DNA from: Heterotrichella gracilis
Taxonomy: Eukaryota > Sar > Xanthophyceae > Tribonematales > Xanthonemataceae
Direction of reading: 5' to 3'
NCBI GenBank assembly: GCA_032358255.1
Contig: JAULBX010027496.1
Span: forward strand, 1 to 36,619
Length of the DNA: 36,619 nt
The stretch's first letter is position 1. The number at the start of each line of letters is the position of its first letter. Of this stretch, positions 18,290-36,619 are shown piece after piece. The notes beneath the pieces were generated by a model. It had not been told where the DNA came from. It saw only the letters and a program-made list of their open reading frames with translations, and ran no database searches. Made by a program: the position numbers and the translations under genes.

Positions 18290-18292
18290 AAT

Positions 18293-21865: not shown

Positions 21866-22029
21866 CCGCTCCGCAGGATTTTTAATCCTGCGGAATAAAA
21901 CAATCTTATGGATTTTTAATCCAATCATATAAACCTTTTCTAAATGAAAAAAGGGATTTCAAATCCCTTAACTCAATGGTCTTGGCAAAGAATTATAATC
22001 CGCGTCTTATTGAAAGCTGCGCAGCCGCG
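21866..22029 (+). repeat. Multi-hairpin element, copy A
   Basis: Starts CCGCTCCGCAGGATT and ends GCGCAGCCGCG. Hairpin 1 CCGCAGGATT-TTT-AATCCTGCGG, hairpin 2 TGGATT-TTT-AATCCA, and hairpin 3 AAGGGATT-TCA-AATCCCTT are intact. Hairpin 4 is degenerate. It interrupts the KilA-N gene. Confidence 0.85.
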
Positions 22030-22048
22030 CTCCAAACAATCGTTTTTG

Positions 22049-22105
22049 ATTATTTACAAAAAATGTAAATTATTTACAAAAAATGTAAATAAATGAGTAT
22101 CTTTA
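22049..22105 (+). promoter_or_regulatory. Tandem operator repeats and -7 box of the GNAT/HTH pair
   Basis: Two exact, adjacent 20-bp copies of ATTATTTACAAAAAATGTAA (22049-22068, 22069-22088) each contain the inverted repeat TTTACA-N5-TGTAAA. TATCTTTA (22098-22105) follows and ends 3 nt before the ATG at 22109. The palindromes sit where a dimeric HTH repressor would bind, and the downstream HTH protein is the natural candidate. Confidence 0.65.
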
Positions 22106-22108
22106 AGT

Positions 22109-22576
22109 ATGCGAATTACCCATGTTAAAACAGGTAAAAACCATGAAATAGTGATTGAAAGGGTGAAGGGCGTCGATTATAAAACGATGACCAAGGCCAG
22201 GTACTTTTTTAATTGGAAAACAGAAAAGAAAAACTGGGTCTATAAATTGAGATTGAACAATGAAGAGGATATACTTGGACTCATGTCATTAGTTAACCTG
22301 GAAGAGGAGAAGCGTTTCGAAATTAAATTAATAGCAGTATCAAAAGAGAACCGGGGAAAACACAGAGTATACGATGGGATCATTGGAAACCTGATAGCCT
22401 TTGCTTGCAGAGAAGTGATACGCTTATATCATTTTGAGGGAGCTGTTTCTTTAGTCCCTAAAACAAAACTTAAAGCACATTACCAAAAAAAGTATGGCAT
22501 GTTGGATGCTGGCTGGCATTTACTTTTACAAGGAAGGGCATTAACAAAACTCATACATAAATACGGATCATTATGA
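22109..22576 (+). CDS. GNAT-fold-like protein, putative toxin of a two-gene module
   Basis: A 155-residue protein with an N-acetyltransferase-like pattern: FNWK (34-37), VYKLRL, NRGKHRVYDG (81-90) leading into GNLIAFAC (93-100), which resembles an acetyl-CoA-binding turn and helix, then HY (124-125) and a C-terminal LIHKYG. It is clearly homologous to the protein at 29858-30388, sharing these same blocks. Its stop overlaps the start of an HTH gene (ATGA), the normal coupling in toxin-antitoxin pairs. The substrate is unknown; the toxin role is inferred from context. Confidence 0.65.
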   Translation: MRITHVKTGKNHEIVIERVKGVDYKTMTKARYFFNWKTEKKNWVYKLRLNNEEDILGLMSLVNLEEEKRFEIKLIAVSKENRGKHRVYDGIIGNLIAFACREVIRLYHFEGAVSLVPKTKLKAHYQKKYGMLDAGWHLLLQGRALTKLIHKYGSL

Positions 22577-23076
22577 AAAACTTAGAAAAAAAATACAGCG
22601 CATCTGAACTCGTTGAAGCTTTTGTATTCAGATCAACATTAACAGCCAAACAACAAGTAGAAGCTGCCAAACAACTGAAGCTAGCGCGAGCTAAGATCAA
22701 TAAACAAACAACTGAAGAAGAAAAACTGCAGTGTGCCATCCTGCAGTTACGTTTTCAGATAGAAGACTATATAAAATCGAATACCTATAATAAGGCCCTC
22801 TCTTTTGGTTATTTTTTACGTCAATACATTAAGTTACGCTATAAAACCAATAAAAAGTTTGCAAAGGATCTTAGACTCGAGGAGACCGAACTAAGTTTGA
22901 TTTTAAATAATCACCGTGCGCCCAGTGAAAAAGTATTGGTGCGTATTGAAATTCAATCCACCATACCGGCTCTGTATTGGTATAAACTAGTAGAAAAACA
23001 AAAAGAGTATGAGCTGGAAACCGATTTTGTGCTTCGGGAAAGAGAAAGTAAGTATGTTAAGAACCGGTTGAAATAA
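22573..23076 (+). CDS. HTH protein, putative antitoxin/autorepressor
   Basis: A 167-residue protein. The N-terminal helical region (YSASELVEAFVFRSTLT, about 8-24, and a coiled segment to about 70) likely binds the partner. A C-terminal XRE/HigA-like helix-turn-helix lies about 92-128 (FAKDLRLEETELSLILNNH), followed by a tail with PALYWYKLVEKQ. I recall related proteins being common in Bacteroidota, but give no family name. Coupled by ATGA to the GNAT-like gene. The tandem operators upstream of the pair fit autoregulation by this protein. Confidence 0.65.
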   Translation: MKNLEKKYSASELVEAFVFRSTLTAKQQVEAAKQLKLARAKINKQTTEEEKLQCAILQLRFQIEDYIKSNTYNKALSFGYFLRQYIKLRYKTNKKFAKDLRLEETELSLILNNHRAPSEKVLVRIEIQSTIPALYWYKLVEKQKEYELETDFVLRERESKYVKNRLK

Positions 23077-23085
23077 AGCGCACAA

Positions 23086-23282
23086 CGCTCCGCAAGTTCT
23101 GTTCCAAAGGTTCCGATCACTATCGGAATTAATCCCGCTCCGCAGGATTTGTAATCCTGCGGAATAAGCAATCTTATGGATTTTTAATCCAATCATATAA
23201 ACCTTTTCTAAATGAAAAAAGGGATTTCAAATCCCTTGACTCAAGCCTATGGCGCAGGATTACAAATCCTGCGCAGCGGCGG
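23086..23282 (+). repeat. Multi-hairpin element, copy B with duplicated head
   Basis: A partial head CGCTCCGCAAGTTC plus the mini-palindrome TTCCGAT-CAC-TATCGGAA (about 23111-23128) precedes a full unit from 23135. All four hairpins are strong, and hairpin 4 is the simple form CGCAGGATT-ACA-AATCCTGCG. It begins 10 bp after the HTH gene stop. Confidence 0.85.
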
Positions 23283-23295
23283 TTCCATTCACTAT

Positions 23296-23495
23296 CCGCT
23301 CCTCAGTTTCCGATCACTAATGGAATTAATCCTGCGGAATAATCCAATCTCTATGGATTTTTAATTTATTCGTATAAACCTATACTAAAAACAAATAAGG
23401 ATTACAAATCCCTTGACTCAATAGTCTTGGCACAGGATTACATTGCTATGGCTATCGGAACCGGCGCAGCGGTTAGCTATCGGAACCTGCGCAGG
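23296..23495 (+). repeat. Multi-hairpin element, copy C, tandem to B
   Basis: Immediately follows copy B. The head is rearranged (CCGCTCCTCAG then TTCCGATCACTAATGGAA) but the right half is normal. The tail carries a duplicated CTATCGGAACC-GCGCAGC unit. No gene lies in 23077-23510. Confidence 0.8.
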
Positions 23496-23510
23496 GGGGC
23501 TAATCCTTCA

Positions 23511-24146
23511 TTAATTTTTCTTTATGTGTTTGCCTCTTGTTCCATTTAATCTTTCTTTATAATCCTGCCTTTGCTCCAACGGAATAAAATTAGGACTTGC
23601 AGTAATGCTTGTGTCAATCGTTAATTGAATTTTCATTTCTTGGCGAATACTATCATAAATAATTGGAAGAAAATAAATTTCTTCCTCGAAATTTTTCTTA
23701 GCAAATTTTTGAAGTAATTCACATTGAAAAGGATCTGTTGCGACTCCAATACATTGAAATCCTGCTTTTTTAGCCAATTGATAACCATAAAATAAATTTT
23801 CCGTGCTATGTTCTGCCAGTGTATCGGTATAAATATTTTCAGACTTAATACCTAATTGCGATGCAAATAAGGCCATGGATGGACCTTCCTTCCATTTAGT
23901 ATAAACAGCATTCCCCGAATAAATAATATTTTTTGTGATCCCTTTTCTATAGAGAAAACTTGACCAAATGATTCTCGCTTTTAGAAGTGTGTCCCATTGA
24001 CCTTTGTGTAACGGTAAGCCGGGTACAACAATAACGTCTAAAGGTTTTATCTGTTCAATGTTTTTATACTGTTTGTTTTGTCTGCTCCCTAAAAACATGC
24101 AGGAGGGCCAGCATAGAATACAAAGGATTGTAAATAAAATTCTCAT
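23511..24146 (-). CDS. YdcF/SanA-like DUF218 protein
   Basis: A 211-residue protein with an N-terminal hydrophobic segment (ILFTILCILCWPSC, possibly a lipobox-like cysteine) and a DUF218 domain: DVIVVPG, R-I-x3-LYRKG, IIYSG, then DTLAEHSTENLFYG. DUF218 proteins such as YdcF and SanA are linked to envelope barrier function and may bind nucleotide. The segment GYQLAKKAGFQCIGVATDPFQ is also typical. Its start overlaps the stop of the upstream lipoprotein gene (ATGA), so the two are co-translated. Confidence 0.75.
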   Translation of the reverse strand: MRILFTILCILCWPSCMFLGSRQNKQYKNIEQIKPLDVIVVPGLPLHKGQWDTLLKARIIWSSFLYRKGITKNIIYSGNAVYTKWKEGPSMALFASQLGIKSENIYTDTLAEHSTENLFYGYQLAKKAGFQCIGVATDPFQCELLQKFAKKNFEEEIYFLPIIYDSIRQEMKIQLTIDTSITASPNFIPLEQRQDYKERLNGTRGKHIKKN

Positions 24147-24952
24147 AGCGGAGAAGTTTTTTTCTTTTTAAATATAAATGTATACTGAAATCCTAAACTA
24201 AAAATGAAAACAGGACTAAATTGTGTATTTCGGATATCAATCGCGGTGGAATAGGGGATCATAAACTGAACTTGCAAAATAGCCGAAACATTTTTAATAC
24301 CTACTTTATTTGTTAAACAGGGTTCCAAGAGGAATAAATTCTTGTTGTAGAACTCCTTATTTACAACATAGACGGGGCTGTTCATCACGAGTGTGCTGTC
24401 CGCATTCAGTTCTTTATAAATGTATTTTTCGAAAACGATATGAGAAAATCGACAATTGATGGAGAACGAATAGTTTATTTTATAAATCTCCATTTTTCCA
24501 AAATAGCCAAAGGAAACTTGAGTAAAATATTTGTTGTACGACGACTCCGTCACATAATTAGATTTGTCGTCATTAAAAGCATTGAACCACACACTGTTTT
24601 GTTTCAAACTATTTCTGCTTGTATTCGCGCCAAATAAAAGCTCATACCTCCATTTGGCATTATCTTTAGAATAATCGTATACTCCAACCAAACCTTCATA
24701 TACTTGCAATCCTTTTCCTAGATTCACATTTGCCCCTATCGAAAAATGATTTATGGGATTTGTTCCAATTAATACTTCGGCATGGTTTGACCCAACAAAG
24801 GCTTTTGCCTGAACTTGCTTTTTTTCATTAAACAAATGTTCGTTACCAATAGTTGGAATGTAAACAGAGCGAATAGCACAACCTGAGAATAAGAGTAAAC
24901 ACAAAAACAGAGAATAGTGTAGCGGAAAAAATGGGGAGATCCGGCCTGTCAT
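24143..24952 (-). CDS. Lipoprotein with beta-rich body, unknown function
   Basis: A 269-residue protein with a lipoprotein signal (LFLCLLLFSGC), then alternating short strands with many aromatic residues and a final aromatic strand (SLGFQYTFIFKKKK), suggestive of an outer-membrane-associated beta structure. No family recognised. The start is the ATG at 24952; the longer frame starts at a TTG that is part of the -7 box TACATTTG (24966-24959), 6 nt upstream. It forms an operon with the DUF218 gene. Confidence 0.65.
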   Translation of the reverse strand: MTGRISPFFPLHYSLFLCLLLFSGCAIRSVYIPTIGNEHLFNEKKQVQAKAFVGSNHAEVLIGTNPINHFSIGANVNLGKGLQVYEGLVGVYDYSKDNAKWRYELLFGANTSRNSLKQNSVWFNAFNDDKSNYVTESSYNKYFTQVSFGYFGKMEIYKINYSFSINCRFSHIVFEKYIYKELNADSTLVMNSPVYVVNKEFYNKNLFLLEPCLTNKVGIKNVSAILQVQFMIPYSTAIDIRNTQFSPVFIFSLGFQYTFIFKKKKTSPL

Positions 24953-24988
24953 ATGTTTCAAATGTAGCTTTTCTCAGTTGATCTTCAA

Positions 24989-25055
24989 AACCGCAGGAAT
25001 TTGTGTATTTCTACTCCGTAGGCTCTGATGACTATCGGAACCTGAGAAGTGGCAA
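24989..25055 (+). repeat. Decayed remnant of the multi-hairpin element
   Basis: CCGCAGGAATTTGTGTA followed by CTCCGTAGG and GATGACTATCGGAACCTGAGAAGTGG resembles the head and hairpin-4 tail of the element with the middle missing and several substitutions. Confidence 0.5.
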
Positions 25056-25068
25056 TTTACGCAGCAAT

Positions 25069-25281
25069 TCAACTAAGCTTTATCGAATTCATAGCTTCTA
25101 TAAGGCCATCCGTAAATGGACTTCTATCGGAGATCGTTTTTTTCTTTTGGAGATTGAACTTTACCTTCAATTCATTTAATGCTTGCGAAAATTCTTCTTT
25201 GCTAATGTCCTGCCGTTCCGGGTGATCATCATCCCGAATGAGTAAGGGATCTTTGTTGAGGATTTTTTCTAATATTCCCAT
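25069..25281 (-). CDS. Small acidic/basic hypothetical protein
   Basis: A 70-residue protein (MGILEKILNKDPLLIRDDD...) predicted soluble and mostly helical, with a central ISKEEFSQALNELKVKF helix. No family recognised. The ATG at 25281 is chosen because the longer frame begins at 25332 within the likely promoter (TTG, 20-nt spacer, TACCTTAA). It stands alone on the minus strand, divergent from the beta-helix gene. Confidence 0.5.
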   Translation of the reverse strand: MGILEKILNKDPLLIRDDDHPERQDISKEEFSQALNELKVKFNLQKKKTISDRSPFTDGLIEAMNSIKLS

Positions 25282-25343
25282 ATGCTTAAGGTACGCATTT
25301 TTTATGGATTTTGCAAGTGCATAAATGAACACAGAATTTTTGC

Positions 25344-25351
25344 TATCTTTA
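25344..25351 (+). promoter_or_regulatory. -7 box of the beta-helix T9SS gene
   Basis: TATCTTTA lies 18 nt upstream of the ATG at 25370. Confidence 0.45.
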
Positions 25352-25369
25352 ATATAAATTTATAATCCC

Positions 25370-26995
25370 ATGAAAACAATTCTAACATTCCTTACTCTTT
25401 TTATCAGTTTAAATTTCCAATTTGCCTTCGCGCAGTTATCCGGAACAGCTTTTCTTTCCGGTCAAACCAACCACTCAGGAATCAAAGTAAAATTTACAGC
25501 CGCTTCCGGCACCGCTGTAAGTGATTCTTGTCTTACCGGCGCATCAGGCACGTATTCCATATCTATTTCCGGAGGGCTGTATTACATTTCATTTAGTAAA
25601 ACGGGCTACCAAAGTCATATGTATAATAATGCAACTATCACTGCGCTCACAAATACGGTCGTTTTACAAACACTCACACTTGCAGTTGGAACTGTTTCAT
25701 ACGTTACAGGTGCTGTAAGCGGAAGCTGGGCAGGAAATGTTACCTACCTGGTTAGCGGAGACCTCAATGTGCCGCTGGGATCCACGCTTACAATTCAGCC
25801 AGGTGCCGAAATAAAATTTCTTGGGAATTATTCCCTTAATGTCAACGGGGTATTAAACGCAAGCGGCACCGGTGTTTTGCCTATTCGTTTTATGCCTTCC
25901 GTATCAACATCATCCTGGAGTGAAGTTAATTTGAATGGCGGACCAAACACACTCGATCATTGTGAATTCAGTAATTTTTCAGGAATTAGCAACTGGAATG
26001 CTGCATTCAGCATCTCAAACTGCCGCATCTCAAACGCCAAACGATATGGTATTCAATTTGTAGATGGAAGTGGAACAATTGAAAACAATGATATTGTTAA
26101 TGCTCCAATAGGTATTGGCGGATATGCCCATTCGGCAACCATTACGTGTAACCGCATCAGCTCACCGATTTATAAAAATGACATGAATGTGATCAACCGC
26201 GGTATCAACATTACCGGTTCCGATCGTTTTACTGATAACGAGATATGGGATTGTCAAGAAGGGATTCGACTTCGTGATTTTTCTGGCACTCCTGTTGTGA
26301 AGAACAATTACATTCACCATACCTCTCACGTTGCTATTTATGTTGAAGCCAACACTTCCCCAACTCTTTTAATAGCAAATAACACGCTTCACCAAAATTA
26401 TATGGGGGTTTACGGCATTCACCAGGGTCTTACTTTATCTAACAATGTGGTGACGTCTTCCACTATTGGCATTTTTGGTTCAGGCATGGACCTCGACCAC
26501 AACCTTATTTTTAATTGTACAACAAATTTCTCTATTAATCCGGCAATTGTTGGACTAGGACAAATAGTGAATACCAACACAAATGGTGACCCGATCGATT
26601 CATATTATAATTTATTTATCGATCCAAATTATGGAACCATGATACCTTCATTTCTTCCGGGCAGCCCCGTGCTTAGCGCAGGTAATCTTAGCCATGGACC
26701 TGACATTGGCGCAAATGTTAACACACTTTGTTTTTCTTCATTAACTACAGGCTTGACCGAAAAAAGTCTTAGCGATTATAAAGCGTTTCCTAATCCATCC
26801 TACGGTGTATACACCATTGAACTGCCTGGTGCTTTGCAGCTGCGTGTCTATACATTAGCCGGAGTAGAAATTCTCAACCGAAACTTCGAAGAAGATAAGA
26901 TCATTGTAAACATCTCTGATCAACCCGCCGGAATTTACTTTTGTGAGATTCGGGGGAGAAACAATACAAAGCTAATCAAGCTGATCCATCTTTAG
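25370..26995 (+). CDS. Secreted right-handed beta-helix protein with T9SS sorting domain
   Basis: A 541-residue protein. After the signal peptide (cleavage about FAFAQ) comes a carboxypeptidase-regulatory-like beta-sandwich (about 22-105, with ASGTYSISISGGLYYI). A parallel beta-helix of the pectate-lyase/NosD type follows (about 110-430), with repeated short turns such as IENNDIV, VVKNNYIHHT and IANNTLHQNYMGVYG. The C-terminal sorting tail is AFPNPSYGVYTIEL to KLIKLIHL. It should be exported through the type IX system and may bind or cut polysaccharide. No catalytic residues can be assigned. Confidence 0.85.
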   Translation: MKTILTFLTLFISLNFQFAFAQLSGTAFLSGQTNHSGIKVKFTAASGTAVSDSCLTGASGTYSISISGGLYYISFSKTGYQSHMYNNATITALTNTVVLQTLTLAVGTVSYVTGAVSGSWAGNVTYLVSGDLNVPLGSTLTIQPGAEIKFLGNYSLNVNGVLNASGTGVLPIRFMPSVSTSSWSEVNLNGGPNTLDHCEFSNFSGISNWNAAFSISNCRISNAKRYGIQFVDGSGTIENNDIVNAPIGIGGYAHSATITCNRISSPIYKNDMNVINRGINITGSDRFTDNEIWDCQEGIRLRDFSGTPVVKNNYIHHTSHVAIYVEANTSPTLLIANNTLHQNYMGVYGIHQGLTLSNNVVTSSTIGIFGSGMDLDHNLIFNCTTNFSINPAIVGLGQIVNTNTNGDPIDSYYNLFIDPNYGTMIPSFLPGSPVLSAGNLSHGPDIGANVNTLCFSSLTTGLTEKSLSDYKAFPNPSYGVYTIELPGALQLRVYTLAGVEILNRNFEEDKIIVNISDQPAGIYFCEIRGRNNTKLIKLIHL

Positions 26996-27218
26996 TTTAA
27001 TTTTGAAGCGGACAATTTAATGCTGCACTTTGTTGATCCAAGTTGGATAAAAACAAAAAACTAAGAATTTGCACTAAATAGACGAAGTCTGAGAAACAAA
27101 AACATTTTTTTAAAAAAAATTGAGACGATCTTTAGCTTGGATTCCAATAAAGTGATACCTCACAAAAAATTTTATTCCTAGTTTCAACCATCTCCATTTC
27201 CCCCAAAATTCATCTTGG
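26996..27218. other. Intergenic stretch without recognisable gene
   Basis: AT-rich, no credible coding frame. The last 30 bp (27190-27211) are a 22-bp exact copy of 27671-27692. Confidence 0.5.
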
Positions 27219-27350
27219 CCGCTCCGCAGGATTGAAAAGCTTACAGAATAAACCAATCTCTATGGATTTTTAACCCATTCATTTAAACCATTACCAAAAA
27301 CAAATAGAGATTACAGATCCGCTGACTATCTATCGGAACCTGCGCAGCGT
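27219..27350 (+). repeat. Multi-hairpin element, copy D (degenerate)
   Basis: Head CCGCTCCGCAGGATT is intact, but the right arm of hairpin 1 is replaced by GAAAAGCTTACAG. The middle is conserved, hairpin 4 is shortened, and the tail is CTATCGGAACCTGCGCAGCG. Confidence 0.75.
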
Positions 27351-27381
27351 TAATGGATAATGGCGAACGTTTTCTGCTGCA

Positions 27382-27541
27382 CGGCCTTCGAGAAATTACG
27401 TTGAGATCAAGAGGCGCGTTTCTGGTGTTCTAAGCAGGCGGTAGGCGCTAAATTAATTCATACATTTTAGCGTCCATGCGCGCCCTTCGCCTGCGGCAGA
27501 AACGCGGCTCGTAGCATCTCAAGTAATTTCTCGTAAGCCTT
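27382..27541. repeat. 160-bp near-palindrome
   Basis: The left side GGCCTTCGAGAAATTACGTT... pairs with the right side ...AAGTAATTTCTCGTAAGCC. The inner arms GCGCGTTTCTG / CAGAAACGCG and GGCGCTAAAT / ATTTTAGCGTCC continue to a short loop near TTAATTCATACA. A 28-bp stretch of its right arm (27514-27541) recurs exactly in inverse orientation at the window end (36592-36619), so this is a dispersed element. Confidence 0.75.
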
Positions 27542-27550
27542 GATTTTTTG

Positions 27551-27576
27551 TTACTTTTTCATCAAGGAAAAAGTAA
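27551..27576. repeat. TTACTTTTTC hairpin
   Basis: TTACTTTTTC-ATCAAG-GAAAAAGTAA is a perfect 10-bp hairpin. A related copy at about 29680-29726 has extra sequence in the loop. No gene is seen between here and 27715; 27624-27642 forms a weak AATTAGC / GCTAATT hairpin. Confidence 0.6.
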
Positions 27577-27715
27577 GACGGAATTATTGGCAATAGATTA
27601 ATACAGAGCTTTAAATAGAAAAATTAGCTTTACGCTAATTAGTCGCTCATATCCGCATGTAAACTTTCCAATCTCCATTTCCCCCAAAATTCTTATCTTG
27701 CCACTAAATTAGCTT

Positions 27716-28480
27716 ATTAAAAAAATCCTTTATACAGCCGGCGCCTCGCTCATCCTCTTGATGGCATTGGTCTATTTTACCCCAATACCCTTTACGGCTA
27801 TTTCACCCAATAGTTATTGGTGCGAAAGTGCCTATGCGCTCACCAACTCCGGCGGCACCCTCGGTTTTTTTGTGGTGCTCTTTATCACAAGCATCTGTTA
27901 TGCTTCCAGCGCGGCTTCCAAGACTTTAAAGACACAAGTATTTTTTAAATCCTTTTTTTCTTTGCTGCTCTTTTTTGGTTCCCTGGCACTGCTCAATGAA
28001 CGCTACACAAAACCACTCCTAAAATTACAAAGACCCAGTCATGTTTATATGCTCAAACAAACCGGTTCAATTAAGGTGATAGACTCTTTGTATCAATTGG
28101 ATAAAAAAACACGCGAAGCATTTTTTGAGAACCTGGTCAAAACCCATCCTTTAGAATTTAAACAAATTGATCCGGATATTACGGAACATTGGATAGAAGA
28201 AGCCGGTTTTTCCTTTCCGAGCGGACATACTTTTAATTCATTTTTGTTTGCCATGATCCTTTCTTACGCCATTATTTATAACCGCTCTTATCCCAGACTA
28301 CGAAAATGGTTTTTTATTCCCTTTATCTGGGCTTTATTTATTGGCATTTCGAGGGTGGCCATTGGTGCCCACAGTGCCTTGGATGTGTCGGCAGGAGCGG
28401 CACTGGGTATTTTTATCGGCTGGTTCTTTTTATACATCGAGAAAACCCGGCATTGGTTAACACGCAAAACAAAACTATGA
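27716..28480 (+). CDS. PAP2-family membrane phosphatase, probable ATT start
   Basis: An integral-membrane lipid/undecaprenyl phosphatase of the PAP2 superfamily. All three phosphatase motifs are visible: KLQRPSHVY (C1), SFPSGHTF (C2) and SRVAIGAHSALD (C3), set among about five membrane helices. The in-frame ATG at 27761 would start inside the first helix. Upstream codons from an ATT at 27716 add a lysine pair and LYTAGASLILL, completing a normal N-terminal helix, directly after an in-frame stop. I therefore favour 27716 as the start; 27761 is the conservative choice. The stop overlaps the glycosyltransferase ATG (ATGA). Confidence 0.8.
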   Translation: MKKILYTAGASLILLMALVYFTPIPFTAISPNSYWCESAYALTNSGGTLGFFVVLFITSICYASSAASKTLKTQVFFKSFFSLLLFFGSLALLNERYTKPLLKLQRPSHVYMLKQTGSIKVIDSLYQLDKKTREAFFENLVKTHPLEFKQIDPDITEHWIEEAGFSFPSGHTFNSFLFAMILSYAIIYNRSYPRLRKWFFIPFIWALFIGISRVAIGAHSALDVSAGAALGIFIGWFFLYIEKTRHWLTRKTKL

Positions 28481-29532: not shown

Positions 29533-29857
29533 AGCTGAAAATACTCCCTTAGCCCATCTTGTGTGCGGGTACTGAGGGACCGGCCTTACGGCAAAGCTTC
29601 AGTAGAGCTTTGAGCGAGCTTGTGAGCAGGTCTTTTGCCAGCGCGCATTCTGGCTCAAATGTGCACTGCACATTTGCCCCTTTTTCACTTGTGCTGAGTT
29701 TATCGAAGCATCAAGGAAAAAGTAAGGCAGAATGTCGGGCTGAATGAGATTCAGCGTCATTAAGAGTAAATTAACTTTAGGCCTATTTGATAGTTACCGG
29801 TAAAGCCTGAGGACAGGGACACTAGGAACTTCTTGATTTTTTCATTAAATTTAATCT
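29533..29857. repeat. Intergenic repeats: hairpins and a 21-bp palindrome
   Basis: No gene. It contains CAAATGTGCA-C-TGCACATTTG (29656-29676, perfect). It also holds a CTTTTTC...GAAAAAG hairpin whose loop carries the word ACTTGTGCTGAGTTTATCG (29687-29708), the complement of a word found in the repeat at 329-350. GCTGAAT-GAG-ATTCAGC follows (29739-29755). TAAATTTA (29846-29853) is a -7-like box 4 nt before the next GTG. Confidence 0.65.
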
Positions 29858-30388
29858 GTGAAAAAGACAAGACCAATACCGCTGGACTTCATCATCGACA
29901 AGCTAACAAATTCAATTGAAAATGTTGTTACCGGTGACAGCTTTGCTACTTCAATTAGCTTAGTTTCCAGGACGGACTTTTCTAAAATTACAAAAAAAGC
30001 CGGCTGGACATTTAACTGGAAGTATGAATTTCAGCAGCCTTATCGTGACGTCTACAAGTTGACTATAGTAAACAATCAGAGCATTATTCAAGGACTTATT
30101 TGCCTTCAAGTAATGACAGATCATGTTTATATGCATTTATTGGAAAGCGCGCCATTTAATCGAGGTAGTTCAAAGATGTATGCTGGAGTTCCCGCAAATC
30201 TTGTTGCATTCGCTTGCCAACTTTCATTTCAGCGTGGACATAAGGGTAATATTTCTTTTATCTCGAAATCTCTTTTAATTAAGCACTATCAGGAGTCACT
30301 TGGTGCAGTTCATGTTGGCGGACGTTTGATGGTTATTGAAACCACTGCCGCTTTAAAATTAATTGACAAATATTTCAAAAACATTTAG
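29858..30388 (+). CDS. GNAT-fold-like protein, second paralogue
   Basis: A 176-residue protein starting with GTG (KKTRPIPLDF). It shares with the 22109 gene FNWK (52-55), VYKL, GL-x2-L, NRG (101-103), Y-x-G-x3-NLVAFAC (108-120), the K-x2-L-x2-HY block (to 144) and the C-terminal LIDKY. The N-terminus is about 18 residues longer. Identity outside these blocks is low. It is followed 1 bp later by a 52-aa gene instead of an HTH gene. It is probably an acetyltransferase-fold toxin-type protein with a different partner; function is inferred. Confidence 0.6.
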   Translation: MKKTRPIPLDFIIDKLTNSIENVVTGDSFATSISLVSRTDFSKITKKAGWTFNWKYEFQQPYRDVYKLTIVNNQSIIQGLICLQVMTDHVYMHLLESAPFNRGSSKMYAGVPANLVAFACQLSFQRGHKGNISFISKSLLIKHYQESLGAVHVGGRLMVIETTAALKLIDKYFKNI

Positions 30389-30389
30389 A

Positions 30390-30548
30390 ATGAAAAAAAG
30401 CAAAGAACTAAACGTAGACACAATTGGCGGACAAGGTTCGCTGACAAAGGAAGAAGAAAAAATAATTTCTGACTTTCTTAAATCTCGCTCGACAAAAAAG
30501 AGTGTGCAGACTCATAAAAAGACAACCAAACGAAAGTCAGCAGCATAA
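30390..30548 (+). CDS. 52-aa partner protein of the second GNAT-like gene
   Basis: A 52-residue protein, MKKSKELNVDTIGGQGSLTK then an EEEKIISDFLKSR helix and a lysine-rich tail. It begins one base after the GNAT-like stop and ends 11 bp before repeat element E. I recall similar short proteins with an IGGQGSLTKEEE core in Bacteroidota but know no function. By position it may neutralise or escort the GNAT-like protein. The ATG at 30390 is preferred to a TTG at 30363 inside the upstream gene. Confidence 0.6.
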   Translation: MKKSKELNVDTIGGQGSLTKEEEKIISDFLKSRSTKKSVQTHKKTTKRKSAA

Positions 30549-30559
30549 TTAAGGAACTT

Positions 30560-30721
30560 CCGCTCCGCAGGATTTATAATCCTGCGGAATAAACCAATCT
30601 TTATGGATTTAAAATCCATTCATATAAACCTTTACTAAAAACAAATAGGGATTACAAATCCCTTGAATAATAGTCTTGGCGCAGGATTACATTCCGATGG
30701 CTATCGGAATCTGCGCAGTGG
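30560..30721 (+). repeat. Multi-hairpin element, copy E (near consensus)
   Basis: Hairpin 1 CCGCAGGATT-TAT-AATCCTGCGG, hairpin 2 around TGGATT / AATCCA, hairpin 3 AGGGATT-ACA-AATCCCT, and hairpin 4 GCGCAGG...TCTGCGC enclosing ATTCCGAT-GGC-TATCGGAAT. It cuts the grasp-with-spasm gene fragment on its right side. Confidence 0.9.
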
Positions 30722-30850
30722 ATATAACCGTTCTATTTCTAGATCGTTCAGGCCATTAATTCTAACAAAATCTTTTTTGTAATATTTTAACCAATCTATA
30801 ACTTCATCCATTGAAGTTTGAAAGTAGGCATTTGACAATATTAGTATCAT
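30701..30850 (-). pseudogene. Truncated grasp-with-spasm-type ATP-grasp gene (N-terminus only)
   Basis: A 49-codon frame starting MILILSNAYFQTSMDEVIDW with KDFVRINGLNDLE following. This is the N-terminal pattern I associate with the ATP-grasp peptide maturases of grasp-with-spasm RiPP systems, which normally exceed 300 residues. After about 43 codons the frame enters repeat element E and stops at 30701. Its ATG overlaps the stop of the upstream DUF6624-like gene (ATGA), showing it was once the next operon gene. No SPASM enzyme or precursor gene is seen. Confidence 0.55.
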
Positions 30851-31782
30851 TTTGTGATGCTTTTGTTTTTTAAAAATTCTTCGACCGGCTGAAACCCCAG
30901 CTTTTTCCTTCTTTTAAGCATCTTTTGGTAGTCGTCCACAACATAAAGCGTTTCCGTTTTGTTTTTATCAATTAAGGTTCCATACTTTTGTGGTTGTCCA
31001 ATATTTCGTAAGGCTCTATCAATTATATATGCAGACATTTTTGGTTCGTAACCTCTCTTTTTTTGATGTAATAATTTTTTGCCTAGAGATAATTGAATAG
31101 TGGGATAATAATCCAGATGTAAAATTATGAGTTGTACAATGGCTGTTCCTTTTCCAATCTCGTTTTTTTTCGGGAATCTTATGGTATCAACTTTATCTGT
31201 AAATTGCTTAAAATTAGTTTTCAATTGAGCAATTCTTTCAGCTTTTGAAATGACAGTATTTCCAAGTATTTCCTGTTCCTTACCATCTATTGCTTCCAGC
31301 GCATTTAGTAAATATGGTTTTTTTAATTTGTTTTCAAATGAATAAGATTCAAATTGACTACAACATAATTTCTTTTGATTATCGAATATAGAGTCATTTA
31401 TTTGCCCGAAAGGTTCAGCTTCTAAGTAAGAACATTTGCATTTACCTTTTGAAATAGAAACATACTTTTCAACAGTATTTATGGCCTCAGGTTGCATTTT
31501 ATTTAGTTGGTAGATCTTTGCCAAATTGTAATAGCCTTGATAATAATTTGAGTCTAATAGAATTAGTTTTTTGTAAAAAAATATTGCTGAGTCAAGATTA
31601 TTAAGATAGTATTCTTTAACGGCTCTTTCAGCTATAAGCTGCTTGCTTTCATCGTATGATTGCATTTTTGAATCCTTAAAAATGAAATGCTGATATATTT
31701 GTGATTTAGACTTGAGTATTAAACCAAAAAGGAGGAATACAAGCCACAAAAAGGTTTTAACGTTTACACCTTTGTTACACAT
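30847..31782 (-). CDS. Secreted/anchored TPR plus DUF6624-like protein
   Basis: A 311-residue protein. An N-terminal signal or anchor segment (FLWLVFLLFGLILK) is followed by two TPR-like helical repeats (YYLNNLDSAIFFYKKLI, YYQGYYNLAKIYQLNK) and a short cysteine-rich stretch (GKCKCSY, KLCCSQ). The C-terminal domain has the pattern SAYIIDRALRNIGQPQKYGT (about 252-271), which matches DUF6624 proteins. Role unknown. The ATG at 31782 is used; the longer frame runs backwards into repeat element F. Coupled to the truncated ATP-grasp frame by ATGA. Confidence 0.65.
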   Translation of the reverse strand: MCNKGVNVKTFLWLVFLLFGLILKSKSQIYQHFIFKDSKMQSYDESKQLIAERAVKEYYLNNLDSAIFFYKKLILLDSNYYQGYYNLAKIYQLNKMQPEAINTVEKYVSISKGKCKCSYLEAEPFGQINDSIFDNQKKLCCSQFESYSFENKLKKPYLLNALEAIDGKEQEILGNTVISKAERIAQLKTNFKQFTDKVDTIRFPKKNEIGKGTAIVQLIILHLDYYPTIQLSLGKKLLHQKKRGYEPKMSAYIIDRALRNIGQPQKYGTLIDKNKTETLYVVDDYQKMLKRRKKLGFQPVEEFLKNKSITK

Positions 31783-31815
31783 AATTCGTATGTTAGCTAA
31801 TCGAAATAAGCGGTT

Positions 31816-31976
31816 CCGCTCCGCAAGATTTATAATCCTACAGAATAAACTAATTTTTATGGATTTATATTCCATTCATTTAAGCCTTTACTAAAAACTA
31901 ATAGGGATTACAAATCCTTTGAATAATAGTCTTGGCGAAGGATTACATTCAGATGGCTATCGGAACCTGCGCAGCT
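31816..31976 (+). repeat. Multi-hairpin element, copy F (mutated hairpin 1)
   Basis: CCGCAAGATT-TAT-AATCCTACAG keeps a weakened hairpin 1. The middle part is conserved (TAATAGGGATTACAAATCC) and the tail is TATCGGAACCTGCGCAGC. Confidence 0.85.
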
Positions 31977-31990
31977 GAATATAATTTCAA

Positions 31991-33079
31991 TCACCGGCTA
32001 ACAATTTTAAAAAACACCTGGTCATATGATAAACTTTTATTTTCTTCAAAAATGAAATAATCAGTATCTAGTTTTTTTGGAACAGCAATATGGAGTTCTT
32101 TGGCCATCTCCTCGTCAACATATGGAATTATTACCCAGCTATTCATTTCGAGCATGTGCTTTTTAATATCCTCAAATAGTTCTTTATTTTGACATTTTAA
32201 CACAAGTCGTTTCGATGGCATTTTTACCAATAATTCTGTCATACAATAAAAGGCAAATTGCGAAGCCTCTTTTTCTAGTTTAGTATTTTTAAATTTTAAA
32301 AGGCTATATTCTGAATAATCTTGAGGTCTGTAATATAAATTGCTGAGGAGCCAAATAATGTTTCCCCAATCTTCTTCTTGTTTTTCACATAATTCCACCA
32401 GCTTTTGAATGAGGCTGATTTGAAACTCACGTTCTTTCACGCCTAAATGCACAATAACCATATTGGGATTGGCAGATTTAAAGGAGCAACTTTGTCCACC
32501 CACTTTTTTAAAACTTGGCCAACCTTTAGATTCAATCAGTTTTTTGTAAAAATTAAAATTTGATTTGTCAATACTTGCTTGAAGAAAAAGGAGTGAATCC
32601 TTGAGATGTTTTTCCATACCTTGCACAATGGAGCCTCTGTAACGCTGATCCTCCACTTGCAGACTATCAATCACCGTTAAATAACTTTTATCAAAAGCAT
32701 TTAGGTAGTTATTTTTATAAGATCGCTGAATATAAGAAGAATCATTTTCCTTAAACATACCTTGTCTGATACATGGATAGGACAAACCCAATGCAAAAGA
32801 AGTATCCAGTTTGTTTTTCCAAGATGTATCAGACCTTCTGTTTAAGAGTATTGATTGATATAAATAGCCCTGGTAACGTAATTTATCTTTGTACTCTTTT
32901 AGGTGAAAGGACAATGAGTCCTTTTCAGAATAGCTGCTGTAGTTCTCAATTTTCTCTCTTAATTTAGAGTCTTCAAGAAAGTTTTTAAAGCTATAGTTTT
33001 GTCCGTAAGCAGAATAAATGAATGAATTAGTAAAGAACGCAAACAATAGTGGTGTTAGTTGAGTGCCGCCTATTTTCAT
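31991..33079 (-). CDS. Secreted protein, DUF6624-related
   Basis: A 362-residue protein with a probable signal peptide (MKIGGTQLTPLLFAFF...IYSAYGQ). The central part (LLFLQASIDKS...IESKGWPSFKKVGG, NMVIVHLGVKEREFQISL) resembles the first half of DUF6624 domains (GWP-x-G, H-x4-FQ), making it a distant relative of the neighbouring gene's product. No catalytic role known. The frame is open a further 63 codons upstream, but those codons come from repeat element G, so I start at the ATG at 33079. Confidence 0.6.
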   Translation of the reverse strand: MKIGGTQLTPLLFAFFTNSFIYSAYGQNYSFKNFLEDSKLREKIENYSSYSEKDSLSFHLKEYKDKLRYQGYLYQSILLNRRSDTSWKNKLDTSFALGLSYPCIRQGMFKENDSSYIQRSYKNNYLNAFDKSYLTVIDSLQVEDQRYRGSIVQGMEKHLKDSLLFLQASIDKSNFNFYKKLIESKGWPSFKKVGGQSCSFKSANPNMVIVHLGVKEREFQISLIQKLVELCEKQEEDWGNIIWLLSNLYYRPQDYSEYSLLKFKNTKLEKEASQFAFYCMTELLVKMPSKRLVLKCQNKELFEDIKKHMLEMNSWVIIPYVDEEMAKELHIAVPKKLDTDYFIFEENKSLSYDQVFFKIVSR

Positions 33080-33204
33080 AAAAGAAACTTTTGGGTTTAT
33101 ATAATTTAAAGATAATTGAAAAATGGAAATTATCAAATCAGGAGGATTATTATCAAAAATAATTCGCATAACTTTTTTACTCATCAACTTTTCAAAAAAC
33201 CTCT

Positions 33205-33366
33205 CCGCTCCGCAGGATTTATAATCCTGCGGAATAAACCAATCTTTATGGATTTTGAATCCATTCATTTAAACCTTTACTAAAAACAAAGAGGGATTAC
33301 AAATCCCTTGAATAATAGTCTTGGCGAAGGATTGCATTCCGATGGCTATCGTAAGATGCGCAGCCG
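33205..33366 (+). repeat. Multi-hairpin element, copy G
   Basis: Near-consensus. Hairpin 2 has GATT-TTG-AATC, hairpin 3 GAGGGATTACAAATCCCT. The hairpin 4 tail is changed (CTATCGTAAGATGCGCAGCC). Read on the minus strand, its left half encodes MNGFKIHKDWFIPQDYKSCG, which runs on into the next gene as a false N-terminus. Confidence 0.88.
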
Positions 33367-33429
33367 TGGACACACAATAATTAATAAGCAAAAATAATAA
33401 GCTTCACAAATTCATCTAACGACGAAGCC

Positions 33430-33870
33430 TTAGAGTAGTTTTTTAATACCGCGTTTAACGGATCCGGAATTTTTGAAACAGGTCAAGATTTCAGAAAATA
33501 GCTCCGGTAACATCTGACCCCATCGCACATAATCAGTGCCTTCAATGACATATAACTCTTTCATTAAATTCTGATCATAGGTATCCAATTCATGTCCATA
33601 CAAATGAGTCTTAAATGGAAAGGTTTTGCCATCGGATGTAACTATGCTAGCAGCGGGAATAACAAAACAGTTTAGGTTAACATCTGGTAGCTCTATGCAA
33701 CCGGTTTTTTCTTCATGCGAGGAAGGTATACTGTCTTTACGTGTAGGCAAGGAGGCTAAAATACTATGAGTACCTGTAACTTTTAAAATAAGGCAATATT
33801 TTTCTTTAGCGGTGTTGCCGTTCTTGAAATAAAAAGGATCAAAATAAATGATTTCGCCTTCGGTAAACAT
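33430..33870 (-). CDS. Putative toxin of a Panacea module, PemK/MazF-like pattern
   Basis: A 146-residue protein starting MFTEGEIIYFDPFYF, then KEKYCLILKVTG and SILASLPTRKD, which looks like the strand pattern of PemK/MazF-type SH3-like barrels; the later part is unrelated to anything I recognise. It starts 5 bp after the Panacea-domain gene on the same strand. Toxin assignment rests mainly on that pairing. MazF/PemK proteins cut RNA; whether this one does is not known. Confidence 0.5.
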   Translation of the reverse strand: MFTEGEIIYFDPFYFKNGNTAKEKYCLILKVTGTHSILASLPTRKDSIPSSHEEKTGCIELPDVNLNCFVIPAASIVTSDGKTFPFKTHLYGHELDTYDQNLMKELYVIEGTDYVRWGQMLPELFSEILTCFKNSGSVKRGIKKLL

Positions 33871-33875
33871 AAGGC

Positions 33876-34451
33876 TTAGTTTATGAGCTGGTATTGCTCA
33901 AATAATTGTTTTTTCTTTTCATCGTGAGCCACCAACACGCTTAAATCTACCAAGTACTCGGTGTTATTTATCAACTCTTTCTCCAGGAGATCTATTACCC
34001 CATATTGCTGAGCTGCGATATGCCAAGGTGAGTTTTTACGATGGGTATAAGCAACCAGTTCTTTAGAGGATTTGTTACCGAATTGTTCTATGACAAGATC
34101 CATTATGGCCATATCATTATCTGAAAATTCATCATCATTAAATGCAGAGTCAGAAACGATGATACTTTGATTTTCTATTCCCTCGCGCCTAATGTAATTC
34201 TTTAATAAGCTGGGCTCGCTCGAAAGGTCTATAAATAATTCCTCAGAAACAGGACCGAATTTCCAAACTTTGTATTTAAGATTCAGCAATGGAATGCCAC
34301 TCTTTTTTATACTCACTTCATCTAAAATATAAAGTAGTTTAAGTAATTTGGTTTTGCTGAGCAAAGGGACTTTAGCTGCTAAATAATTAGCTGCATTGCC
34401 TATTTTTTTTAATTGATTGGAAGTATATTGAATATATGGTAAGTTAACCAT
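33876..34451 (-). CDS. Panacea-domain (DUF4065/SocA-like) antitoxin
   Basis: A 191-residue protein. The N-terminal two thirds has the Panacea pattern (ANYLAAKVPLLSKTKLLKLL, VWKFGPVSEELFIDL, then ELVAYTHRKNSPW near 135). Panacea antitoxins neutralise several unrelated toxin types. It is the first gene of the pair. The -7 box TAATTTTG (34463-34456) is 4 nt before the ATG, so the transcript is probably leaderless. Confidence 0.8.
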   Translation of the reverse strand: MVNLPYIQYTSNQLKKIGNAANYLAAKVPLLSKTKLLKLLYILDEVSIKKSGIPLLNLKYKVWKFGPVSEELFIDLSSEPSLLKNYIRREGIENQSIIVSDSAFNDDEFSDNDMAIMDLVIEQFGNKSSKELVAYTHRKNSPWHIAAQQYGVIDLLEKELINNTEYLVDLSVLVAHDEKKKQLFEQYQLIN

Positions 34452-34548
34452 AAATCAAAATTACGGATTTAAATTACAAGACTTGCTATGTTTTGTAGTA
34501 TTTAACAGACTTTTTTAAGAGAAGCAAGTTAAAGTTTAAAACCACCCT

Positions 34549-34723
34549 CCGCTCCGCAAGTTCCGATTACTATCGGAATTATTCCTGCGGAATAAACCAA
34601 TCTTTATGGATTTTTAATCCATTCATATAAACCTTTACTAAAAACAAATACGGATTGCAAATCCCTCGAATAATAGTCTTGGCGCAGGATTGCATTCCGA
34701 TAGCTATCGGAACCTGCGCAGCA
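34549..34723 (+). repeat. Multi-hairpin element, copy H with nested palindrome
   Basis: Hairpin 1 carries the mini-palindrome TTCCGAT-TAC-TATCGGAA inside its loop (CCGCAAG...ATTCCTGCGG). Hairpins 2 and 3 are close to consensus, and hairpin 4 encloses ATTCCGATAGCTATCGGAAC. Confidence 0.88.
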
Positions 34724-34779
34724 GAAGGTCTCAAAGGTTTCATGCAATCTAAAATTCTTACCAAATCATTTTTAAATAA

Positions 34780-34863
34780 TTCATTATCAATGAAATATAT
34801 TATATATTTGCAAGAATTTTAAATTAAAATTCTTGCAATATTAGCGATAATTTAATATCTTTG
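34780..34863 (+). promoter_or_regulatory. AbiE promoter with two inverted repeats
   Basis: TTGCAAGAATTTTAA-A-TTAAAATTCTTGCAA (34808-34838) has perfect 15-bp arms. A second, weaker site TTCATT-ATC-AATGAA lies at 34780-34794. The right arm of the large palindrome contains the -33 TTG (34833-34835), followed after 20 bases by the -7 box TATCTTTG (34856-34863). AbiEi antitoxins are known to repress their own operon through upstream inverted repeats, so this is the likely operator. Confidence 0.7.
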
Positions 34864-34881
34864 CATAAGAGGAATAGAAAC

Positions 34882-35478
34882 ATGACAACTTTGAAGGCGC
34901 TTAAAAAGCATTTAAAAAAAGGAAGGGTTTATCGAAGGAATGAATTATCTGAATGGTCTAAATCCGTTGATAGACATCTGGAAGAATTGCAGAAAGAAGG
35001 AGTTTTAGAAAAACTCTCTCAAGGATTGTATTACGTTCCTCAGACTTCCGTTTTTGGAAAGGTGCCACCGGATGAAGTTGTTTTGGTGCGCAGCTTTTTA
35101 AAAGATGATCGGTTTCTTCTGGTCTCACCGAATTTTTATAATAGCCTTGGTCTTGGTACAACTCAGCTTTACAATAAAAAAGTAGTTTATAATCATAAAC
35201 GACATGGCAAGTTTAAATTAGGAAACAGAGATTTTGAATTTCAGTTGAAACATCATTTTCCGGCAAAAATGACAGAAGAGTTTTTGTTAGTGGATCTAGC
35301 AAATAATATAGATAACTTAGCCGAAGATCGTGATCAGGTAATGAATAAACTACTTTTGAAAGCATCTCAAATGCCTTCTAAAAAACTGAATCAAGTTGTT
35401 ATGGCATATGGAAGTGCTAAGACTAAAAAAATGTTTAAACCACTTATGAGCAATACCAGCGCACTTGCCAATGCCTGA
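34882..35478 (+). CDS. AbiEi-like antitoxin (DUF6088 type)
   Basis: A 198-residue protein with an N-terminal winged-helix region (about 1-55, with GRVYRRNELSEWSKSVDRHL and GVLEKLSQGLYYVP) and a C-terminal domain of the AbiEi type. It is the antitoxin and probable repressor of the abiE pair. The frame extends to a TTG at 34861 that is part of the -7 box, so the ATG at 34882 is used; AAGAGGA lies 8-14 nt before it. Overlaps the next gene by 8 bp. Confidence 0.82.
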   Translation: MTTLKALKKHLKKGRVYRRNELSEWSKSVDRHLEELQKEGVLEKLSQGLYYVPQTSVFGKVPPDEVVLVRSFLKDDRFLLVSPNFYNSLGLGTTQLYNKKVVYNHKRHGKFKLGNRDFEFQLKHHFPAKMTEEFLLVDLANNIDNLAEDRDQVMNKLLLKASQMPSKKLNQVVMAYGSAKTKKMFKPLMSNTSALANA

Positions 35479-36421
35479 CTTTTTACACGATCATAAACAG
35501 TTTGCTTCTTTGATGACTATTCTTGCAAACGACAAGAATATTGAACCCGGATTAGTTGAAAAGGATTATTGGATCATGCATGTTTTGTATGGATTAAAAA
35601 AACAAGGTTTTCAATTTGAGTTAAAAGGTGGAACTTCTTTATCTAAAGGATACAAACTAATTCATCGATTTTCAGAAGATATTGATATCCATATTAAGCC
35701 GCCGAAAAAATTTTCCATCAATGAAAATCCAAAGAATACAAATAAAAATAATGCAACGAAACGAAAAGCTTTCTATGACTGGCTTGCAACTGAAATAAAA
35801 ATACCCGGTATAACTTCCATAGAAAGAGATACAGCTTTTGATGAAGAAACCACTTATCGTAGTGGAGGTATTCGATTGCATTACGAAAATAAGGTTGATA
35901 AAGTTGGAGCGATGAAAGAAGGTATTCTTTTGGAAGCCGGATTTGATAATGTTACTCCAAACAAACAGATCACCATGAGTTCTTGGGCGTATGATAGAGC
36001 AATCGAATCTAAAGTTGAAATTGTTGACAATAGAGCACTAACTATTTCATGTTACCATCCCGGTTATACATTAGTAGAAAAATTACAAACGATCGCCACT
36101 AAATTCCGCAACGAACAAAGTAATGGAAACAAAGGACTTAACTTTATGCGTCAATACTATGATGTGTATTGCCTCTTAGACTCGAAAGAGGTCTTAGAAT
36201 TCATCGGTACAGCAGAATACTTAAAGCATAAAGAAAAGAGATTTCCCAAAATAGATCATGAAATTCCAATTCATAAAAACGAGGCTTTCTTATTATCCTC
36301 GCCAAAAATACGGGCCGATTACACGAAAAGATATCATTCAACATCCGCTTTATATTATCAGGGACAGCCTCCTTTTGAGGAATTAATTAAACGAATAGCG
36401 AAGCATATTAAAAAAATGTAA
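35471..36421 (+). CDS. AbiEii-like nucleotidyltransferase toxin (DUF1814)
   Basis: A 316-residue protein with nucleotidyltransferase motifs GGTSLSKGYK (GGTS at 53-56) followed by EDIDIHI (D70 and D72 as metal ligands), and a C-terminal FMRQYYDVYCLLD block typical of the family. AbiEii proteins act on tRNA or nucleotides and give abortive phage defence with AbiEi. The ATG at 35471 is preferred to a TTG at 35465. The motifs visible are intact. Confidence 0.82.
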   Translation: MPDFLHDHKQFASLMTILANDKNIEPGLVEKDYWIMHVLYGLKKQGFQFELKGGTSLSKGYKLIHRFSEDIDIHIKPPKKFSINENPKNTNKNNATKRKAFYDWLATEIKIPGITSIERDTAFDEETTYRSGGIRLHYENKVDKVGAMKEGILLEAGFDNVTPNKQITMSSWAYDRAIESKVEIVDNRALTISCYHPGYTLVEKLQTIATKFRNEQSNGNKGLNFMRQYYDVYCLLDSKEVLEFIGTAEYLKHKEKRFPKIDHEIPIHKNEAFLLSSPKIRADYTKRYHSTSALYYQGQPPFEELIKRIAKHIKKM

Positions 36422-36447
36422 GCACAGTTTTATTTCCTATGCACTAA

Positions 36448-36517
36448 CCGCTCCGCAGGATTTATAATCCTGCGGAATAAACCAATCTTTATGGATTTTT
36501 AATCCATTCATTTTTTT
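36448..36517 (+). repeat. Multi-hairpin element, copy I (right half missing)
   Basis: Head and hairpins 1 and 2 match consensus up to TTAATCCATTCATTT, then the sequence changes. It starts 26 bp after the AbiEii stop. Confidence 0.85.
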
Positions 36518-36619
36518 GCAGATAAATTCTCAATTTCTCTCCTGTTCTTTTGCTTGATCAAAAGAACCAAACCCCGTATAGCTATCGGGGCAAGGCTTAC
36601 GAGAAATTACTTGAGATGC
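36518..36619. repeat. Hairpin repeats at the window end
   Basis: GTTCTTTTG-CTTGAT-CAAAAGAAC is a perfect 9-bp hairpin (about 36544-36567). The mini-palindrome CCCCGTATAGCTATCGGGG (36574-36592) follows, then 28 bp (36592-36619) identical to the inverse of 27514-27541. The element runs past the window edge. No gene is seen. Confidence 0.7.

What the first reader, a model, noticed from the sequence alone, without database searches (positions are those of the whole stretch)
21866..36517. Repeat-delimited cassette array rich in toxin-antitoxin-type modules
Nine copies of one roughly 165-bp element, all on the same strand, separate small independent gene modules: KilA-N remnant, GNAT/HTH, DUF218/lipoprotein and T9SS gene, PAP2/GT and GNAT2, DUF6624-like genes, Panacea pair, AbiE pair. 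Four of the gaps hold toxin-antitoxin-type pairs. Module strand varies but element strand does not. Two modules are cut exactly at an element edge. This layout resembles an integron array, but I see no attC core sites or integrase, so it may be a different recombination-based cassette-swapping arrangement.
Basis: partly seen in the sequence, partly recalled or inferred. Interest (0 to 1): 0.75.

Follow-up and report, generated by a model that had tools for sequence, protein, structure and literature searches.

The report
Palindromic transposon relics between accessory genes
A Bacteroidota DNA segment carries nine same-facing copies of a hairpin-rich repeat between unrelated accessory genes; the repeat looks like a gene-less relative of a known single-strand-DNA transposon family and not like an integron, although same-facing clusters with genes cut at their edges are unusual.

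Summary
The repeats are real: eight longer copies and one 66-nt piece, all on one strand between 21866 and 36513. They do not look like attC sites (strict core sites in 0 of 9 copies), and no protein of the assembly passed the integron-integrase cut-off of TIGR02249. In related Bacteroidia the element's left 33-nt hairpin is the terminal palindrome of a REP-associated tyrosine transposase (RAYT): all 5 plus/minus pairs lying 634-712 bp apart enclose a RAYT gene, two of them interrupted by stops. One relative holds a RAYT-less element of about 160 bp with the same order of hairpins. The repeat is best read as a non-autonomous REP/REPIN-type element of a Bacteroidetes RAYT class. Same-strand clusters recur in one relative (G087), with an ORF6N gene and toxin-antitoxin-like fragments cut at element edges. 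I infer that RAYT-type copies settled between genes of an accessory island and that recombination between same-facing copies deleted or joined DNA. Active cassette swapping is not shown: one junction is the same in another sample, two unit borders lack an element, and no empty site was found. Toxin-antitoxin content has good profile support for two modules (AbiE, SocA/Panacea), little for two others.

The parts
21192..21863 (-). KilA-N gene remnant, 5' half missing at the left edge of copy 1
   Evidence: Pfam KilA-N positions 46-106/107 from residue 4; lengths of listed homologs; frame read
21866..22027 (+). element copy 1
   Evidence: no Pfam hit; weak HTH hits
23135..23279 (+). element copy 2, with the simple right palindrome
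23296..23472 (+). element copy 3, left palindrome holding a second hairpin
23511..26995 (.). module: DUF218 (-), outer-membrane-type protein (-), small ORF (-), T9SS-sorted beta-helix protein (+)
   Evidence: OMP-DUF218 pair in 7 of 20 fetched relative loci
27219..27349 (+). element copy 4, short degenerate right arm
   Evidence: PAP2 beside the GT in 7 of 9 relative loci
30560..30721 (+). element copy 5
   Evidence: fold
30719..30850 (-). 5' fragment weakly resembling a grasp-with-spasm ATP-grasp maturase, running into the right edge of copy 5
   Evidence: TIGR04192 positions 1-34/318, E 0.0028, far below cut-off
30847..31782 (-). TPR / DUF6624-like protein; its stop overlaps the start of the fragment
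   Evidence: overlap read
31816..31977 (+). element copy 6
   Evidence: same junction in homolog P0001
31991..33079 (-). uncharacterised 362-aa protein (start codon chosen by me)
   Evidence: no family match
33205..33366 (+). element copy 7
33430..34451 (-). uncharacterised 146-aa protein and SocA/Panacea-domain protein
   Evidence: PF13274 E 4.9e-21; partner without match
34549..34722 (+). element copy 8, left palindrome holding a second hairpin
34861..36421 (+). AbiEi/AbiEii pair (type IV toxin-antitoxin)
36448..36513 (+). element copy 9, left 66 nt only, close to the contig end

Best explanation
The repeat is a non-autonomous, REPIN-like derivative of a Bacteroidota RAYT element (Y1 HUH transposase of REP type, most likely subclass 2.6). 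Shown: its left hairpin equals the end palindrome of RAYT genes in relatives, and a RAYT-less element with the same order of hairpins exists in one relative. Inferred: copies were placed in intergenic DNA of an accessory island by RAYT-type single-strand transposition and persisted where they broke no needed gene. Recombination between copies facing the same way then removed or joined the DNA between them, leaving gene stumps that end at element edges and a patchwork of unrelated modules. The toxin-antitoxin content is ordinary cargo of such islands.
For: Matches in 11 of 37 and 11 of 87 relatives, all within the left part of the element; the palindrome with up to 3 mismatches in 20 of 87 genomes, 50 hits, 0 for the reversed-pattern control. 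All 5 plus/minus pairs 634-712 bp apart enclose RAYT sequence: G013 C26, G042 C12 and G059 C62 open, G013 C8 and G010 C209 interrupted by stops. The RAYT in L116 passes NF047646 (96.6 bits, cut-off 80). RAYT-less element of about 160 bp in L111, a larger one on own contig C111, and a degenerate RAYT start between palindromes in L112. Same-strand clusters and edge-cut genes in G087.
Against: No RAYT of this type in the window's own assembly, only two canonical Y1 proteins. Of 12 genomes searched with the RAYT protein, 5 had no match: G000 and the palindrome carriers G007, G016, G024, G076; G087 had only a 28-residue remnant. The middle and right parts of the element had no match in relatives. 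Most copies have a modified right arm. The relatives' elements fold by minimum energy into one long hairpin, not four. Recombination is inferred from stumps, three of four of them weak matches. Relatives hold at most 11 palindromes, on both strands, so nine in 15 kb on one strand is not typical.
Confidence: 0.65

Rival explanations
1. Module-swapping platform: same-facing elements act as homology tags by which DNA carrying one element integrates, and modules loop out, so the array gains and loses genes at element borders.
For: 9 of 9 same strand (two-sided chance about 0.004 by hand if orientation were random); copies 1 and 2, which flank one module, share private bases; gaps share only short repeats; same-strand clusters in G087; module pairs recur in relatives in other neighbourhoods.
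Against: Copies differ by up to 36%, so most are old; one junction is the same in another sample; two unit borders lack elements; the modules traced elsewhere have no palindrome core nearby.
Confidence: 0.15
2. Passive accumulation: RAYT-type copies insert with a strand preference, for example on the lagging-strand template, and survive only between genes; no recombination role.
For: Lagging-strand preference is described for IS608 and ISDra2 (PMC6006769 passages); 0 element bases overlap the frames taken as coding.
Against: Gene stumps at edges need a deletion step; G054 C7 holds both strands on one contig; no match in the first 21.8 kb against 9 in 14.7 kb.
Confidence: 0.15
3. Integron-type cassette array with divergent attC sites.
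For: Same-facing hairpins, small accessory modules, toxin-antitoxin genes; a tyrosine recombinase on contig C222 resembles integron integrases and just passes NF040815, a broad model whose description includes integron integrase (221.4 bits, cut-off 220).
Against: Strict cores RYYYAAC/GTTRRRY in 0 of 9 copies; even bare AAC...GTT pairs are missing from copies 6, 7 and 9; TIGR02249 not passed, with model positions 178-237 unmatched in the best hit; the palindrome belongs to RAYT genes.
Confidence: 0.02

Closest known systems
REPINs and REP/RAYT systems (Pseudomonas and others)
   Same: Inverted pairs of REP palindromes, non-autonomous, same palindromes beside a RAYT gene; ordered clusters are reported as tandem repeats (PMC3116915, passages).
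   Different: Here about 160 bp with two inner hairpins and mostly a modified right arm; units are separated by whole gene modules instead of short tandem repeats.
TnpA-Y1 subclass 2.6 / RAYT group 5 (Bacteroidetes)
   Same: The relatives' RAYT has NHIH, WQ and YIHNNP and lies between hairpins; the paper gives atypical structures for 2.6 (PMC6006769, passages), and the window elements lack a GTAG foot but for one stray GTAG near copy 6.
   Different: The three motifs also fit subclass 2.4 of the same table, so 2.6 is the likelier, not the proven, class; no such gene was found in the own assembly.
Integron cassette arrays
   Same: Alike in appearance only: same-facing structured repeats between small modules including toxin-antitoxin pairs.
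   Different: No strict attC cores, no integrase over the TIGR02249 cut-off, genes cut at edges.

Membership tests
REP/REPIN of RAYT type | Same palindrome flanks RAYT genes in inverted orientation | tested here: met
   all 5 plus/minus pairs 634-712 bp apart in relatives; tested on relatives, not on the window's own genome
REP/REPIN of RAYT type | Two inverted REPs forming one non-autonomous unit | tested here: met
   window copy 2 has the simple right arm; L111, L106 and C111 likewise; most window copies have a modified right arm
REP/REPIN of RAYT type | Cognate RAYT in the same genome | tested here: inconclusive
   none in G000, but the bacterium may be only partly in this assembly; also none in 4 palindrome carriers
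REP/REPIN of RAYT type | Mobilisation by RAYT | not testable with these tools
   needs an assay
Integron | attC core sites RYYYAAC / GTTRRRY | tested here: not met
   strict consensus in 0 of 9 copies with 20-nt flanks, both strands; bare AAC...GTT pairs absent from copies 6, 7, 9
Integron | IntI integrase in the genome | tested here: inconclusive
   TIGR02249: 8 stretches, none over cut-off; the best one just passes the broader NF040815; genome possibly incomplete
MITE of a DDE transposase | Target-site duplication at element ends | tested here: inconclusive
   longest shared words in 30-nt flanks are 4-9 nt, the longest from neighbouring repeats; no shuffle control, ends not exact

The most novel reading that the evidence does not exclude
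A RAYT-type hairpin element has been turned into a general border tag: same-facing copies let a chromosomal island gain, lose and trim accessory modules, toxin-antitoxin pairs above all, giving an integron-like array without an integrase, arisen at least twice (this bacterium and G087).
Probability: 0.12. Interest if true: 0.75.

Novelty: new variant of a known kind. Interest (0 to 1): 0.4.

Why it matters
If confirmed, it links a little-studied Bacteroidota RAYT class to the build-up of accessory and toxin-antitoxin genes. It also gives a concrete test of whether REP elements shape gene content by recombination instead of only sitting between genes. It warns that same-facing structured repeats between cassettes need not mean an integron.

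Tried and rejected
Integron: strict attC cores not met; integrase test not decisive. DDE-type MITE: no consistent target duplication, test not decisive. Known RNA family: 0 Rfam matches at gathering scores, 0 tRNAs. Carriage by phage or plasmid: no match in viral contigs for two exact patterns, none in plasmids for the element or for the 14.7-kb array at high similarity, none in phages for the element. Growth of the array by duplicating whole modules: gaps share only short repeats, and among the 32 window ORFs compared by blastp the only pair below E 0.01 is the two GNAT-like proteins. A first exact-pattern scan of genome contigs gave 0. A structure model of the 176-aa 'GNAT' protein came out at mean pLDDT 41 and was not searched. 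Covariation in the hairpins was not counted. On whether such arrays are in print, the listings (titles and abstract starts, some capped) showed none; papers were seen as passages or listings, never whole.
Full report
What is there. The window is contig C499 (36.6 kb) of a 68.5-Mb, 903-contig assembly. Its genes are bacterial and of Bacteroidota type (T9SS sorting domains; the best of 80 gltX loci is 88% identical, in a MAG labelled Sphingobacteriaceae, and the list is mostly Bacteroidota MAGs). That the contig is a bacterial companion or contaminant of a larger assembly is inference. Nine same-strand copies of one element lie between 21866 and 36513; copy 9 is only 66 nt. A search of the whole assembly listed these nine and one weaker match on contig C111 (such counts are lower bounds).

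Anatomy. A full copy (about 160 nt) reads: palindrome CCGCTCCGCAGGATT-NNN-AATCCTGCGGAATAA, a small hairpin, a spacer, a second small hairpin, and a right palindrome ending CCTGCGCAGC. Copy 5 folds into four hairpins as single-stranded DNA at -35.1 kcal/mol against a shuffle mean of -14.4 (z -6.8). Copy 2 keeps a simple right palindrome; most others hold an extra TTCCGAT/ATCGGAA hairpin there. Identities among the eight longer copies run from 64 to 94%.

What it belongs to. A DNA search of 37 related genomes, reached through 37 of the 80 gltX loci, gave matches in 11. A search of the 87 held genomes of the same family gave 11 at a stricter limit. Every listed match lies in the left part of the element (query positions 4-76 and 1-65). 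As a pattern with up to 3 mismatches the left palindrome occurs 50 times in 20 of 87 genomes, with 0 hits for the reversed-pattern control. A second pattern, asked of the order, met the same number of genomes and matched in 19 of 87. All five plus/minus pairs 634-712 bp apart enclose RAYT sequence: G013 C26, G042 C12 and G059 C62 with an open frame, G013 C8 with one stop and G010 C209 with several. L116 scores 96.6 bits against NCBIfam REP_Tyr_transpos, cut-off 80.

Which RAYT class. Its motifs NHIH, WQ and YIHNNP (read) agree with the row for subclass 2.6 (RAYT group 5) in PMC6006769 (passages). They agree with the row for subclass 2.4 too. Subclass 2.6 is said to be mostly in Bacteroidetes and flanked by atypical structures with copies elsewhere; 2.4 goes with canonical or double-foot REPs. 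GTAG, the canonical foot recalled for REPs and named there for E. coli, is missing from the window elements except once near copy 6. So 2.6 is likelier, not proven.

Against this reading. With the L116 RAYT protein as query, 7 of 12 genomes matched. G000 did not, nor did four genomes that carry the palindrome (G007, G016, G024, G076); G087 has only a 28-residue remnant. With the general Y1 family, 11 of 13 genomes matched, G000 with two canonical proteins only.

Non-autonomous forms. L111 (G010 C190) is a RAYT-less element of about 160 bp with palindrome, small hairpin, spacer, second hairpin and inverted palindrome. L106 is a shorter form. C111 of the own assembly has a larger one. By minimum energy these three fold as one long hairpin with paired ends, unlike copy 5; the energy set in that script was not checked. 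L112 (G017 C47) has a degenerate RAYT start between two palindromes (read; weak match), which suggests origin by internal loss. The L100/L117 RAYT copy has a small hairpin before its right palindrome, as in the window.

Arrangement. 0 element bases overlap the 17 frames taken as coding, while 86% of the other array DNA is coding. This depends on start codons I chose: the mechanical frames to 31875 and 33268 enter copies 6 and 7. The result fits selection against insertions in genes as well as a border role. Two unit borders lack an element. The gaps share only short repeats, among them a 30-nt imperfect duplication on either side of copy 4 (27190-27217 and 27671-27700) and a 29-nt repeat at 27514-27542 and the contig end.

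Edge cuts. KilA-N: model positions 46-106 of 107 start at residue 4 of the fragment; 115 of 120 listed homologs have 267 aa or more, five have 228-245, the fragment 223. Grasp-with-spasm: positions 1-34 of 318, E 0.0028, far below cut-off, at the right edge of copy 5. In G087 an RstR-like fragment (60-106 of 108, E 0.0034, below cut-off) and a ParE-like fragment (14-84 of 89, E 0.0011, below cut-off) both begin at a palindrome's left edge. Only the KilA-N case is strong. I read these as deletion joints; no intact precursor was seen.

The G087 comparison. In the stretches fetched, six palindromes on C30 (five plus, one minus, within 2.2 kb) and four on C1 (all minus, within 0.7 kb) cluster, with none found by the same pattern in the rest of the 15.7 kb of C1 and 10 kb of C30. 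Among them lie an ORF6N protein, the two fragments, and small proteins of unknown kind. Same-facing clustering is thus not unique to the window. It is not universal: C24 of G087 has a pair on opposite strands, and G054 C7 has both strands.

Modules in relatives. The glycosyltransferase has a strong homolog (E 1e-60 or better) in 9 of 87 genomes, with PAP2 in 7 of those 9 loci, once only in part; DUF218 has homologs (E 1e-15 or better) in 32 of 87, and 7 of the 20 loci cut out also have the OMP gene. An exact palindrome core was found in 0 of these 29 loci, which reach about 1.5 kb to each side. The array lies past the end of a conserved block (gltX-DUF6427-aminotransferase). Beyond that block, 15 relatives were compared over 0.6-7.6 kb (14 gave frames): all gene families but one occur in one locus only, and no array gene was met; L058 keeps the window's small gene 18023-18295 there. 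The relatives are too distant for an empty-site test.

Toxin-antitoxin content. AbiEi/AbiEii and SocA/Panacea are supported by Pfam and, for AbiE, PADLOC. AbiEi and SocA lie below the NCBIfam equivalog cut-offs and AbiEii has no NCBIfam match. The two GNAT-like proteins are 36% identical and match no family in four libraries; a structure model was too poor to use.

Integron test. Strict cores: 0 of 9. Bare AAC...GTT pairs 35-160 nt apart occur in six copies with flanks but not in copies 6, 7 and 9. TIGR02249 rings below its cut-off in the assembly, as in all 14 control genomes. The best protein, on C222, just passes NF040815 (221.4 against 220), a broad Xer-type model whose description includes integron integrase. 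That C222 belongs to the same bacterium is not known.

Mechanism and weight. Identity as a RAYT-derived REP/REPIN-type element: well supported. Insertion by RAYT: inferred from the family. Recombination between same-facing copies: inferred from edge-cut genes and direct orientation, moderate. Active module swapping: possible, not shown. A homolog of the 30847 protein from another sample (8 differences in 342 residues) reads into the same element at the same place, so that junction is shared. GC skew changes sign inside the window without a clear switch, so replication bias could not be judged.

Literature. REPINs and tandem clusters: PMC3116915 (passages). REP placement: PMC3733652 (passages). 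IS elements targeting REPs: PMC1525189 (listing only). The listings showed no paper on same-facing REP arrays between toxin-antitoxin modules in Bacteroidota.

Noticed in passing
27380-27542 and 36591-36619: A second repeat type with inverted arms (20 nt at 85%, 14 nt at 93%); 29 nt of it recur in reverse at the contig end, which may be where the assembly broke.
   Followed up: partly
27190-27217 and 27671-27700: A 30-nt stretch, 93% alike, lies on both sides of element copy 4, the second one upstream of the PAP2 gene.
   Followed up: no
L168:399-929 (G087 C1): RstR-like and ParE-like fragments start directly at the outer edge of a palindrome, and the frame stays open back through the palindrome.
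   Followed up: partly
L167 and L168 (G087): Several palindromes are followed by a terminator-like ACCGTAG...CTACGGT hairpin or a second repeat, CCGCTCGCGCGGATAT.
   Followed up: partly
22109-22576 and 29858-30388: Two homologous proteins of an uncharacterised family, one beside an HTH-like gene and one beside a very small ORF; possibly a new two-gene module.
   Followed up: partly
window 1-36619: The contig is bacterial although it lies in a 68.5-Mb assembly; the kind of host or sample is unknown.
   Followed up: no
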